Below are positions 4,271 to 7,625 of a stretch of DNA of 64,000 bases, in pieces. Below the pieces are notes generated by a model. That model was not told the origin of the DNA. It saw nothing but the letters and a program-made list of their open reading frames with translations, and made no database searches. How positions within the stretch are numbered: position 1 is the stretch's first letter; every line of letters starts with the position of its first letter. Origin of the DNA: Betaproteobacteria bacterium (GTDB taxonomy: Bacteria; Pseudomonadota; Gammaproteobacteria; Burkholderiales; JACQAP01); assembly GCA_016194905.1 (NCBI GenBank), contig JACQAP010000012.1:1-64000 (forward strand), in the 5' to 3' direction. A program made the translations under genes and the position numbers.

Positions 4271-4348
<78 letters not shown>

Positions 4349-4408: not shown

Positions 4409-4458
4409 CCTGAGTCGTAATCAGGCGGTCGAAGGTTCAACTCTTCTCATCAGCACCA
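4409..4458 (+). pseudogene. tRNA-Thr(CGT)-like 3' fragment
   Basis: CCTGA-GTCGTAA-TCAGG forms a perfect anticodon arm with anticodon CGT. A five-base variable region, an imperfect T-arm with loop TTCAACT, and acceptor 3' strand CATCAGC followed by ACCA come after it. The matching 5' acceptor strand (GCTGATG) and a D-arm are absent upstream, and the T-stem has mismatches, so this is not a working gene. It may be an attachment-site relic of another integration or a degraded element-borne tRNA. Confidence 0.5.
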
Positions 4459-4698
4459 GTAAAACAATGGCTGGAGGACTGCGGGCCAATTTCGTTTGCG
4501 TAGATGCTGTGTAGACGTGTCACTATTGGCATTGACGCTGTAAAACCGTTTCCGGGAGGGCCTGGCCCTGTCTCCGCGGCCAGTGGCGACCTGCAGCTCG
4601 GTGTCCCATTAAAGGAGTTCTTTCCGTGAAGGACCGAGGAGTCGTAAATTGCCAAGCTGCAGAAAGTTCAATACAGACACATTGTGGTGAACAATGTA

Positions 4699-5088
4699 TT
4701 AGAACCCTAACATCTTCAGTTCCGACGCGAGAGCCACAGATTCCGCGTTTACCTTAGGACGCCATTTTTGCCATGCACTTCCCCGAGCAGCTATGCGCTT
4801 CAAGGTCTCGGGATCCGTGGGCGAGTCCGAATCCGAAAGCATAATACCAATGGGCTCTGGGCCAACGCCCTCTTGCCAGTCGGCTAGAGAGACGTAACCA
4901 AACACCAGCGATTTCAAAACCTGGGGGTTAGGCGCTACTGGCAAGAGCAACCTGATTGCTTGTTTGATCTCTGATTTCGAAAACGGCAGTTCCCTCAGAT
5001 CTATGACGTGAGGCTGCGGAATCTTTGCGACCGCAGTTAGGGTTGCGCCGTAAGCGTTTATGATCTGTTGGGCTCTGGCAATGTCCAT
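4699..5088 (-). CDS. Hypothetical protein (129 aa), island gene
   Basis: I do not recognise this protein. It is soluble and mixed alpha/beta in appearance, with an N-terminal helix (DIARAQQIINAYGA), a segment LPFSKSEIKQAIRLLL near residue 34, and FGYVSLADWQEG near residue 64; no signal peptide or membrane segment is visible. A GGGGGTAG purine run about 6 bases before the ATG supports the start. It lies 143 bases downstream of the three-gene operon on the same strand, so it may be co-transcribed but is not translationally coupled. Confidence 0.6.
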   Translation of the reverse strand: MDIARAQQIINAYGATLTAVAKIPQPHVIDLRELPFSKSEIKQAIRLLLPVAPNPQVLKSLVFGYVSLADWQEGVGPEPIGIMLSDSDSPTDPETLKRIAARGSAWQKWRPKVNAESVALASELKMLGF

Positions 5089-5231
5089 AATGAGCTACCC
5101 CCCGATCCGACGGACACTTCCGATCGATGTAAAGATCGTTTCCGAACAAGATATGTTCACCAATGCTTAAAGACGCTTGGAGATGTCGACTTGCAAGAGA
5201 GCAACGTTACCGAAGGGTAAGTGATGCCTGG

Positions 5232-5696
5232 CTATGACTGACGGTATGGCTCTATCGCCCACCCGTGGGATTCTGCAATTCGACAGAGCGCATCCTTAAG
5301 CTTGTTGAAGCGGTTGCCATTTGCGAACGAAGGATCCGTTTCGATTTGCGCATGAGATCGATTCTCCGGAAGTCCGGAGGGGTTTCCGGACTCAATCGGA
5401 CGAGCAATTACGTCCACTTTCAGCGTGATTCGCTCCGTCTGAGCGGCCCCTGGATTATTGACGAGTCCTGCGATGGCACGAACTTGGAGAGCCTCTAGTT
5501 GAGCTACTCCGTCGGTAGCACTGATTTGAGTATCTCTAGGGTCGTCCCGTAAACTCTTACGATCTACAGATGGCTTCCATTCAGTGTCATTGAACGCCTG
5601 ATTGGACAAACGCCAACTGGTCCCATCGTAAACCACATATTCGTAGCGAACGCTTCGGTGTAGCACCTCGTCGTCTGTGACCGGTCCCACGCACAT
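5232..5696 (-). CDS. Unknown small protein, third gene of the TIGR04255 operon
   Basis: This 154-residue soluble protein has no recognised function. Notable segments are SWRLSNQAFNDTEWKPSVDR (about 27-46), containing an A-F-x-D and P-S-V-D-R pattern, and HAQIE near 115 followed by a helical C-terminus (NKLKDALCRIAESHGW). Its ATG shares one base with the TAA of the upstream gene (TAATG), so translation should be coupled. No catalytic motif is evident; the conserved-looking SVDR and HAQIE patches could be an active or binding site, which is speculation. Confidence 0.7.
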   Translation of the reverse strand: MCVGPVTDDEVLHRSVRYEYVVYDGTSWRLSNQAFNDTEWKPSVDRKSLRDDPRDTQISATDGVAQLEALQVRAIAGLVNNPGAAQTERITLKVDVIARPIESGNPSGLPENRSHAQIETDPSFANGNRFNKLKDALCRIAESHGWAIEPYRQS

Positions 5697-6196
5697 TAGT
5701 CAATCTGCAATCTGAGCCAACGCCATAGATCAGCAAAACCGTCTTTTTCCAGAACGCCGGCTTCCATCTGCGTCTCAATATTTGATCCCCAACTGCTTAC
5801 ATACTCAATTGTCTCTGGCGAAAAATAGAGCGTTAACTTTTTGTGGTAATTCCACCACTCAAAAACCACATCACCGCGTTCGTTCAGTCCCACATGAGGA
5901 TCTACCCAGCCGAAATTCGCAATCTTGGTTTGGTCAAATAGCTCCTCAATAGCCTCCACCGCGCTAGCGATGGAATTTTCGTTGTGTGCCGCACTTCCGT
6001 AGCCATCCCAATTCGCATTCCTGCTGGCCATCTTAAAGATTGCTAGACGCACCCTGCGCGATGTCAGATCGCGTAAACGTTCCGATGCGGGCACAAGCCA
6101 ATCCTTACGCAGATTGGCGACGACTTCGCCAATGCCTACATCTCGTAAGGCTAACTCATGAACAATAGAGCTCTCACCGCTGGATTGGAATCTCAT
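5696..6196 (-). CDS. Unknown protein with NWDGYG motif, second gene of the TIGR04255 operon
   Basis: This 166-residue soluble protein has function unknown. A helical N-terminal half leads to NWDGYGSAA (62-70), then a helix, then a beta-rich part with ERGDVVFEWWNYHKKLTLYF (106-125). I have the impression of a recurrent family of small proteins with a WDGYG motif followed by a D-x-x-x-E-W strand, but cannot name it. The start is taken at 6196, where ATG overlaps the TGA of the upstream gene (ATGA), rather than at a possible earlier codon at 6229. It ends in a TAATG overlap with the next gene. Confidence 0.7.
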   Translation of the reverse strand: MRFQSSGESSIVHELALRDVGIGEVVANLRKDWLVPASERLRDLTSRRVRLAIFKMASRNANWDGYGSAAHNENSIASAVEAIEELFDQTKIANFGWVDPHVGLNERGDVVFEWWNYHKKLTLYFSPETIEYVSSWGSNIETQMEAGVLEKDGFADLWRWLRLQID

Positions 6197-6987
6197 GCGA
6201 TTAGTTCCCTCATTTTGTCGGTTAAGCAAGTTTCGAACAGTTCGTTCTTTTTATCGCGCAGACCATCTAACAAAGTCCAAATCGTCGCATCGCCAGACGA
6301 AAGTTCAACCCCTGTCTGAAAAACATCAATGTCCAGCACGAACGCTTGTGAACGTGGGTCCGGTGACGCTTGCGATGCTACGGAAACCGTAGAATGTACA
6401 TTCGGACCAAGACTTGGTTGTGGGATCAGAATTTGCATGAAAACACCGGAAATTGGTCCAACGGAATCAGGTACTTCAGGGACAACTCGCAAATAGTGGC
6501 TAAGATCGATCGGCCCTGCTGGCAACATCAAGCGATTAATGTATCGCACTGCCACGCGCGTAATTTGTTCTGGCTTGCACAGCTCGACGAACTTCGCCCA
6601 AAGTGGCATCGCCTCTTGCTTGAAAATTTCCCAACGCGTATATGGTGGCAAGTGGCTATAAGTAAAACTCTTGCGTTGAATTTGCAAGATGCGGTCATTT
6701 TCGGCTGTAAAGAGTTTCCACCCAGTTTGTCCTTGCGTAGACGGCATTGATTCTATGTGCCCATCTTCGTTCTTCAGTCCAACGGTGAAAAACTGTAGGG
6801 GTTCTCGCCTCGCGAACTTTGCAGCGAATGCATCTGCGCACTCAGTCACAACAGGGAATTCGAGATGATCTGGATAACGCACTTGTATATCTATGACCGC
6901 TTCTACGATCGGAGCGCGGTTATAAATTCGCCGAGACGGTGCCCCACTGATTCCCGAGGCAGCGCTTGTTCCTGTGGCAGCGCTCAT
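6193..6987 (-). CDS. TIGR04255 family protein
   Basis: This 264-residue protein matches the hallmarks of the TIGR04255 family, a sporadically distributed bacterial family of unknown function. The visible hallmarks are NRAPIVEAVIDIQV (23-36), a central FSxSHLPPYTRWE-like segment near 107-120, RVAVRYINRLMLP (144-156), LDIDVF (218-223) and a C-terminal LRDKKNELFETCLTDKMREL (243-262). There is no signal peptide or membrane segment. It is first in an operon whose three genes overlap by 4 and 1 bases. A purine-rich AGGAA lies about 12 bases before the ATG. Its place in a tRNA-anchored island suggests an accessory role, perhaps in conflict with phages or other elements; that is inference. Confidence 0.85.
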   Translation of the reverse strand: MSAATGTSAASGISGAPSRRIYNRAPIVEAVIDIQVRYPDHLEFPVVTECADAFAAKFARREPLQFFTVGLKNEDGHIESMPSTQGQTGWKLFTAENDRILQIQRKSFTYSHLPPYTRWEIFKQEAMPLWAKFVELCKPEQITRVAVRYINRLMLPAGPIDLSHYLRVVPEVPDSVGPISGVFMQILIPQPSLGPNVHSTVSVASQASPDPRSQAFVLDIDVFQTGVELSSGDATIWTLLDGLRDKKNELFETCLTDKMRELIA

Positions 6988-7433
6988 TCTGCGGGATTCC
7001 TAGCCGATGTGTAGTGCGTAGATTAAAGTGTACAAGGCACGAATGGTAGCGTATTCAGCCTATCGAAGAAACCGCACACGATCCTCTTCAGTTACAGCAC
7101 CCCGGGCAGACGAGGATGAAACCTTCTGACCGTACAGTTATTGACAGTACTCCAAGAACCCGCAAAATCTCTCCGGCTATACGTGGCGTCCACAAAGTGC
7201 AATGCTTCATCGCCGGCGAGCCGTCCGGGCGGCACGCGAGCCGCAGGCGCGTGCCGCCCGGACGGCTCGCCGGCGCCGGAGGCTGGCTCATCCCGTCGTT
7301 TCGTAATCGGTTCCGAGCGCTCGTTGCCGGCCTGGGTGCTCTGGCGAACGACTGTCCAGTCGTGCAGGCGAGTCGGGCAGGCGGTTGATCCGAACTCCAC
7401 CCCGAAAATCTACCATCCCACCGGCTCACCTTA
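6988..7433. other. Non-coding right arm of the island
   Basis: About 445 bases lie between the TIGR04255 start and attR. The first hundred are A/T-richer and should hold the minus-strand promoter of the operon, although no clear -35/-10 pair stands out. The remainder contains the long inverted repeat at 7211-7275. Open frames here on both strands are low-complexity (Arg/Pro/Gly-rich) translations of the palindrome and of the tRNA repeat and are not considered genes. Confidence 0.6.
7211..7275. repeat. Perfect 27-bp inverted repeat (hairpin)
   Basis: Bases 7211-7237 and 7249-7275 are perfect reverse complements, with an 11-base loop whose outer pair also matches. The arms are very GC-rich. 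There is no T-tract, so it is not a standard terminator. It resembles a REP/BIME-type palindromic repeat or a transposon-end palindrome. A second copy was not noticed in the window. Confidence 0.85.
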
Positions 7434-7468
7434 GTGTCGGTGGTTCGATTCCGCCCTTGGCCACCATC
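7434..7468 (+). repeat. attR: right direct repeat, partial tRNA-Phe 3' end
   Basis: Identical to 4314-4348 over 35 bases, covering the T-arm, the acceptor 3' strand and CCA of tRNA-Phe. Without the 5' two-thirds it cannot make a tRNA. It marks the right end of the island, about 160 bases before the TRAP transporter operon. Confidence 0.85.
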
Positions 7469-7625
7469 CCTCTTCCAGGCGACATTCGGTTCCATCTCAC
7501 TCCCTGTTATCCGCGGCGCAGCTTGACAGCGATGCATGCGTGCATTGATAGTTCAGCACCTTGAAATGACCGGCGGGCCGAGGCCTGCCGGCTATAAAAA
7601 TTAGAAATGCTCCGGGGGGAGAAAC

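What the first reader, a model, noticed from the sequence alone, without database searches (positions are those of the whole stretch)
5232..6987. Coupled three-gene operon of unknown families led by a TIGR04255 protein
Three genes overlap by 4 bases (ATGA) and 1 base (TAATG), so their products are made in fixed ratio, which is typical of a complex or a multi-component system. The first belongs to TIGR04255, a sporadically distributed family without known function; the others have distinctive motifs (NWDGYG with a later EWW; SNQAF with PSVDR and HAQIE) but no known catalytic signature. The cassette sits in a small tRNA-anchored island without an integrase. Sporadic occurrence, mobile location and translational coupling are the usual profile of anti-phage or inter-element conflict systems. 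The defence role is inference.
Basis: partly seen in the sequence, partly recalled or inferred. Interest (0 to 1): 0.8.

Follow-up and report, generated by a model that had tools for sequence, protein, structure and literature searches.

The report
Modular three-gene toxin-antitoxin-like cassette
A small mobile island beside a tRNA gene carries three linked genes that recur together in many bacterial phyla and look like a toxin-antitoxin system with an unusual fixed third partner whose toxin slot is exchangeable; this is inferred from sequence only and not tested in the laboratory.

Summary
Three minus-strand genes, A (TIGR04255), B and C, overlap by 4 and 1 bases inside a 3.1-kb island between tRNA-Phe and a 42-bp copy of its 3' end. 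They are one member of a widespread cassette. Profiles built without the window's proteins place P0002 (E 1.6e-13) and P0003 (E 9.7e-6) in two families that occur together, in this order behind TIGR04255, in 12 phyla. In 205 genomes searched with the C family, 8 of 10 hits lie next to TIGR04255; the other 2 are broken pieces. Across 189 unique TIGR04255 loci, A plus a small, usually overlapping B is the constant theme, and C is exchanged (28 switches, the fewest that one A tree allows). In at least nine loci C is a known toxin type: PIN/VapC, PemK/MazF, YhaV, zeta or HEPN. In two toxin classes B ends in the cognate antitoxin's tail behind a different front part. Best reading: a tripartite toxin-antitoxin module, with A as constant partner of the antitoxin B (chaperone or sensor) and C a new toxin family. 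It works like toxin-antitoxin-chaperone systems but has no SecB match. An anti-phage role is plausible, not shown. No paper in the searched library names TIGR04255.

The parts
4271..4346 (+). tRNA-Phe (gaa), proposed integration site of the island
   Evidence: Rfam tRNA 71.6 bits
4314..4355 (+). left 42-nt repeat (tRNA-Phe 3' end), attL-like
7434..7475 (+). right 42-nt repeat, 95% identical, attR-like
6193..6987 (-). gene A, TIGR04255 protein (P0001), constant partner; beta/alpha fold predicted at pLDDT 92.5
5696..6196 (-). gene B (P0002 from its ATG), 'GWDG' family, proposed antitoxin/adaptor; ATGA overlap with A (TTG 6229 is an alternative start)
5232..5696 (-). gene C (P0003), family 'C_af', proposed new toxin/effector; TAATG overlap with B

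Best explanation
The operon is a tripartite toxin-antitoxin-like module. C is the toxin or effector. B is its antitoxin: its C-terminal part binds the cognate C and its N-terminal part serves the partner A. A (TIGR04255) is the invariant third component; as a protein without a recognisable active site it most likely holds, folds or stabilises B and may sense the trigger (phage protein or stress) that frees C. Translational coupling A>B>C makes A and B before C. Shown by sequence: the conserved order A-B-C, exchange of C against known toxins, hybrid B proteins with known antitoxin tails in two classes, and copies at tRNA genes, in phage contigs and on plasmids. Inferred: toxicity of C_af, neutralisation by B, the A-B contact, and any defence role. 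The chaperone-like role of A is the weakest step (about 0.4 on its own).
For: Co-occurrence: 64 of 74 GWDG-type B genes are followed by a C_af gene; P0002 and P0003 join both families in profiles that left them out. The triple is in 12 phyla. C_af was found in 10 places of 205 genomes: 8 next to TIGR04255 (one of these, G174:C360, itself incomplete), the other 2 pieces elsewhere (44 residues; interrupted by stops). Exchange: the C slot holds YhaV (6.8e-46) and PemK (1.1e-18), PIN/VapC (L070 1.4e-8; L079 Pfam 1.1e-5; L246 1.4e-9), zeta toxin (annotated; best Pfam E 3.1e-12), HEPN (4.7e-8, 4.2e-6) and DUF7689 (13 of 80 rows). On a tree of 159 A proteins the C class changes 28 times (10 is the minimum possible, shuffled mean 73); starred branches alone force at least 8 for C_af, 7 for QG-SCD and 4 for HEPN. 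Hybrid B: in the YhaV locus B residues 85-129 match the PrlF antitoxin tail (0.0026 NCBIfam; 0.0058 Pfam; both under the curated cut-offs) and the first 84 residues match nothing. A profile of three tails from cyanobacterial plasmid loci without TIGR04255 in the 3.1 kb fetched, two of them directly in front of a PIN gene homologous to that of L070, hits only L070_B (7.7e-9) and L126_B (8.9e-8) of 386 B and C rows; both are followed by that PIN type. The four PIN loci found show A, then a small B, then PIN. B of another class has a helix-turn-helix hit (HTH_3, 1.8e-4, 21.9 bits, cut-off 23).
Against: No experiment exists. C_af has no known toxin homologue: Pfam, PDB by sequence, fold search with a weak model, pLDDT 62.9. 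Loci with a known toxin are few: 8 by Pfam plus L126 by homology, and I had no family search left to measure how often such toxins follow a random gene. The N-terminal B motif is supported only in part: 6 of 28 B proteins of other classes and 4 of 22 GWDG B proteins of other A branches at p<=0.05, against 5 of 214 controls; the window's own B has p=0.15; training the other way round gave a different consensus. Hydrophobic N-terminal segments, which chaperone addiction would suggest, are rare: 15 of 176. No SecB relation was found by Pfam.
Confidence: 0.65

Rival explanations
1. Phage-defence system of the sensor-adaptor-effector kind without classical antitoxin action: A senses infection, B is an adaptor, and C becomes active only when assembled with A and B.
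For: Sporadic distribution; copies in two viral contigs beside tail, ejection, terminase and integrase genes; plasmid copies near argonaute-PAZ and cas6 and type I restriction genes; neighbours of 20 loci include viperin, PtuA, AbiEii and type I S matches.
Against: B carries antitoxin tails in two classes and the C slot can hold ordinary TA toxins, which are active alone (activity recalled). The matched controls also match 124 PADLOC models against 185, and neither call gives the number of distinct proteins hit.
Confidence: 0.2
2. A plain two-part B-C toxin-antitoxin pair; A is only the operon's autoregulator (its fold weakly resembles the TATA-binding protein) or an accessory.
For: Foldseek lists TBP chains at probability up to 0.97 and E 7e-3 to 8e-2. 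Many B proteins show no DNA-binding domain, which a normal antitoxin often supplies (recalled).
Against: No intact C_af gene was found away from A in 205 genomes. B proteins of one class have their own HTH. Other folds score as well or better: AdoMetDC first in Foldseek, spermine synthase and arginine kinases first in VIA-align, so the TBP likeness may be just a common arrangement.
Confidence: 0.15
3. A metabolic or structural operon of unknown kind, the toxin-bearing loci being chance neighbours.
For: The window's own B and C have no known function; the background rate of toxin genes behind random genes was not measured.
Against: Gene overlaps with known toxins and hybrid antitoxin tails; repeated switches of C on the A tree.
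Confidence: 0.07

Closest known systems
Toxin-antitoxin-chaperone (TAC) systems, e.g. M. tuberculosis TAC and the anti-phage CmdTAC
   Same: Three genes: toxin, antitoxin, and a partner on which the antitoxin depends there and is thought to depend here. In CmdTAC newly made capsid protein displaces the chaperone, the antitoxin is degraded and the toxin freed (abstract and passages of PMC11618068; abstract of PMC6377645).
   Different: The partner is TIGR04255, with no SecB match by Pfam. It is the first gene of the operon. The proposed A-binding part is at the N-terminus of B, not a C-terminal ChAD sequence. The toxin slot is very diverse.
Panacea antitoxin domain and the core combinatorial network of antitoxin domains
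   Same: One conserved domain paired with many toxins, and partner swapping (opening of the abstract of PMC8832971 in the listing; passages of PMC10440598).
   Different: There the promiscuous domain is part of the antitoxin itself; here it is a separate protein, and B carries the toxin-specific part. P0001-P0003 have no Pfam match at E<=1.
Type II pairs PrlF-YhaV, PemK/MazF, VapBC and cyanobacterial PIN pairs
   Same: Same toxin families and, for YhaV and one PIN type, the same antitoxin tail.
   Different: The antitoxin's usual front part is not there and a TIGR04255 gene stands in front.

Membership tests
TIGR04255 | score over the curated cut-off | tested here: met
   126.2 bits against 30
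Type II toxin-antitoxin | window's C homologous to a known toxin | tested here: not met
   no Pfam match at E<=1, one off-target NCBIfam match far under its cut-off; fold search uninformative
Type II toxin-antitoxin | cassette relatives carry known toxins in the C position and cognate antitoxin tails in B | tested here: met
   toxins; tails in two classes only; order:
Type II toxin-antitoxin | C toxic, neutralised by B as protein | not testable with these tools
   needs expression assays
TAC | SecB-family chaperone by sequence | tested here: not met
   Pfam scan of P0001 at E<=1 gave 0 families
TAC | SecB fold | tested here: inconclusive
   not among the rows shown, which does not exclude it
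TAC | chaperone-addiction extension in the antitoxin | tested here: inconclusive
   N-terminal motif shared by part of the B proteins; hydrophobic segment in 15 of 176
Panacea antitoxin | Panacea domain (DUF4065; the number is recalled) | tested here: not met
   no Pfam family for P0001-P0003 at E<=1
Catalogued anti-phage systems (PADLOC 2023) | match to a system component | tested here: not met
   no match at E<=1 for P0001-P0004

The most novel reading that the evidence does not exclude
TIGR04255 is the hub of a large, previously unrecognised superfamily of tripartite toxin-antitoxin immune modules: a dedicated sensor/holder protein that can be combined with almost any toxin, provided that the antitoxin carries an A-binding front part. 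The C_af, QG-SCD, DUF7689, SLW and papain-like families in its C slot would then be several new toxin families at once.
Probability: 0.4. Interest if true: 0.88.

Novelty: new variant of a known kind. Interest (0 to 1): 0.74.

Why it matters
TIGR04255 is annotated only as a sporadic family of unknown function. If it is the common partner of many toxins, one protein explains the partners of several uncharacterised families. It would give a second, SecB-independent kind of three-part toxin-antitoxin control, and name new candidate toxins that can be tested with simple expression and phage-plating assays.

Tried and rejected
Single-sequence search with P0002 found only G248 besides the window's own genome (2 of 369); profiles were needed. 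Single-sequence searches with P0001 found nothing in viral contigs or phage records and 3 plasmids; two further viral scans gave only the contig of L134 again and nothing. C_af (L188) was not found on plasmids. A mixed A/B alignment around the natural A-B fusion L183 misplaced the B rows, so the fusion was not modelled. The model of C is weak and its fold search meaningless. PDB by sequence: A gave a response regulator at E 0.06, C_af eIF4E at 0.05, B a designed helical bundle at 3.7e-7 and gasdermin B from 0.055. I take the last two as composition of the N-terminal half of B, not kinship; not followed up. A first motif run caught the GWDG domain's own helix and was replaced. Trained on the 28 non-GWDG B proteins, the motif gave 8 of 44 against 3 of 75 and 5 of 64 controls with another consensus, so it is weak. 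tblastn of B proteins: L070_B gave only E 0.3-0.7, which became meaningful through the PIN gene behind two of the hits; L096_B gave nothing, so an antitoxin tail there is unproven. Of the papers listed I saw titles and abstract openings, except where stated. That TIGR04255 is not in print rests alone (PMC open-licence text, no preprints).

Limits of counts. Only A genes of at least 60 bits in my own profile entered the pooled set. Starts were chosen by script, which favours an overlap near -4 when the ORF opens more than 40 bases upstream, and the window's own value was set to -4 by hand, so 84 of 186 exact -4 overlaps is an upper estimate. 25 of 202 A loci were dropped from the tree as 'unk' (contig ends, misread next gene), plus identical, short and over-85%-identical rows. 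One of the 25, L126, later proved to hold PIN. The 80 rows include some misread next genes and, for L218, the annotated B instead of C. C classes other than the Pfam-supported ones are my own motif labels, some set by hand. The tree is FastTree with long branches. One search covers 50 of the 73 loci. The PADLOC calls used 148 of 231 neighbour ORFs and 148 of 243 control ORFs and list 25 of 185 and 25 of 124 models. HEPN by motif is 6 loci; of these six C proteins given to Pfam, 2 match. The HicA-like C of L264 has only E 0.045, under the cut-off.

Full report
What is there. On the minus strand, genes A (6193-6987), B (5696-6196 from its ATG) and C (5232-5696) overlap as ATGA and TAATG. A is TIGR04255 (126.2 bits, E 1.8e-36). 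B and C have no NCBIfam, Pfam or PADLOC match worth the name. The genes lie between tRNA-Phe and a 42-bp copy of its 3' end, 3120 bases apart. GC is 0.49-0.53 over 4500-7000 against 0.55-0.61 in the flanks; the last 0.5 kb of the island is at 0.60. I recognise no integrase there.

Distribution of A. TIGR04255 occurs in 35 of 369 genomes of the class, 30 of 398 of the phylum, 21 of 194 and 15 of 198 of two other phyla (centred on G747 and G753), and 0 of 14 control genomes. Each sample includes its centre, which was known to have the gene, and the first two samples share some genomes. The window's genome holds two copies. The constant pattern is A followed by a small gene B: of 189 unique A loci, 186 have a B call, 158 overlapping A and 175 at most 30 bases away; of 175 C calls, 154 start at most 30 bases after the end of B (start-choice caveat in Tried and rejected).

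The window's subtype. A scan of named genomes with six A proteins returned the best 80 of 123 relatives. A profile of 'GWDG' B proteins, built without the window and its nearest relative, gives P0002 E 1.6e-13; the C_af profile gives P0003 E 9.7e-6 (database size set to 140). Of 74 GWDG B loci, 64 have C_af as the next gene. Of the other 10, L163, L193 and L138 have no further gene call; L141, L151, L152 and L185 have weak C_af-like hits (0.0044-0.018); L072 has an incomplete C_af; L213 and L144 have none found. C_af without a GWDG B: L168 only (L178 and L203 are copies removed from the B list). The triple is in 36 named loci of 12 phyla, in 26 sampled-genome loci with 19 family codes, and in the 2 viral contigs. 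Searching 205 genomes with the C_af alignment gave 10 places: 8 next to A, one of them incomplete, and 2 pieces elsewhere (A places).

The exchangeable slot. Other A loci carry other C genes: YhaV (6.8e-46) and PemK (1.1e-18); PIN/VapC in four loci, L070 (Pfam 1.4e-8), L079 (NCBIfam 3.7e-12, under its cut-off; Pfam 1.1e-5, over it), L246 (1.4e-9) and L126 (tblastn 2e-28 to the L070 PIN); a zeta toxin on a Vibrio plasmid; HEPN in L243 and L218; DUF7689 in 13 of 80 rows; and unnamed families that I label QG-SCD, SLW and papain-like by motif. On a FastTree tree of 159 A proteins the C class changes 28 times at the fewest (10 is the least possible, 73 in shuffles): inherited, yet repeatedly swapped.

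B as a hybrid antitoxin. In the YhaV locus the last 45 residues of B match the PrlF antitoxin's tail (0.0026 NCBIfam, 0.0058 Pfam, both under the curated cut-offs) and the first 84 residues match nothing. On cyanobacterial plasmids a two-gene pair without TIGR04255 in the 3.1 kb fetched has a protein of 87 or 96 aa whose tail precedes a PIN of the L070 type (104 bits for L302, 79 for L301). A profile of three such tails (the third, in L300, is not directly followed by that PIN) hits exactly L070_B and L126_B of 386 B and C rows, copies included (7.7e-9 and 8.9e-8), and both are followed by that PIN. In L246 and L079, too, a 79- and a 113-aa B overlap A by 4 bases and precede a PIN. The plainest reading: the toxin-binding end of an antitoxin has been joined to a new front part that goes with A. 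Trained on 44 GWDG B proteins, a short N-terminal motif (about GxSxEAxxL) is found at p<=0.05 in 6 of 28 unrelated B proteins and 4 of 22 GWDG B proteins of other loci, against 5 of 214 control stretches; the window's B is not significant (p=0.15) and the reverse training gave another consensus. That is modest support for a shared A-binding segment. Natural A-B fusion: L183.

Fold of A. AlphaFold2 gives pLDDT 92.5, pTM 0.86. Foldseek's first rows are AdoMetDC (E from 1.4e-4, TM at most 0.30), with many TBP rows behind. VIA-align puts human spermine synthase first (Z 9.1, 99 residues, rmsd 2.6), then arginine kinases (Z up to 8.8, 176 residues, rmsd 3.8), with AdoMetDC and TBP lower. By the tool's own note Z of 7 to 8 is usual without a clear match, so this may be a common arrangement; it names no active site. 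C was modelled at pLDDT 62.9, without a usable match.

Mobility and defence context. Of 50 loci scanned, 8 have a tRNA within 360 bp of the operon; the control density is 4 tRNA genes in 280 kb, which predicts about 0.5. L115 lies in an island whose far end repeats 50 bp of the tRNA-Arg region; in the other seven of these loci no comparable second copy was seen in the stretch held, though L110 has a 92-bp imperfect copy beside its tRNA. Two viral contigs carry A-B-C among phage genes: DNA ejection 2.5e-38 and tail proteins in L134; terminase 4e-207 and integrase 3.5e-116 in L135. A single-sequence search found none in the phage records. Plasmid copies sit near argonaute-PAZ, cas6 and VapC genes (Thermus) and type I restriction genes (Crinalium). 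Neighbours of 20 loci match 185 PADLOC models; the 25 shown include viperin, PtuA, AbiEii and type I S. Matched controls match 124; most of the 25 shown are methyltransferases. The output does not give distinct proteins, so I call this suggestive only.

Verdict. A real, recurrent and apparently undescribed three-gene cassette (one search is the only search on the name), best explained as a tripartite toxin-antitoxin module with a constant TIGR04255 partner and an exchangeable toxin, C_af being the window's version. Its molecular steps and any anti-phage role remain to be tested.

Noticed in passing
window 4699-5088 (-): 129-aa ORF inside the island, weak sub-threshold RelB-like hit (E 0.13-0.23), no relative in any fetched locus.
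   Followed up: partly
window 4429-4458 (+): By eye the 3' part of a tRNA just behind tRNA-Phe; it occurs nowhere else in the held genome within 3 mismatches; possibly a relic of another insertion.
   Followed up: partly
window 7211-7275: Perfect 28-bp inverted repeat with a 9-nt loop near the right end of the island; its 24-nt core is found nowhere else in the held genome within 3 mismatches.
   Followed up: partly
L063 11569 onward (G000:C30): Second TIGR04255 cassette of the same genome with the same B and C families; by eye behind a transporter substrate-binding gene.
   Followed up: partly
L134 6010-7629: Phage contig with the cassette behind a tail-fibre-like gene, where accessory (moron) genes often sit (the position rule is recalled).
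   Followed up: partly
C slot of L153, L158, L198 and others: DUF7689 proteins with conserved NC-AWA and THAARQ-like motifs paired with a B that I call HEAT-like by eye: candidate cysteine-protease-like effectors; no paper in the library holds DUF7689.
   Followed up: no
L065, L067, L092, L093, L121: Another pair of B and C families, C with HLAWH-like and C-FV motifs resembling papain-like amidases (resemblance recalled).
   Followed up: no
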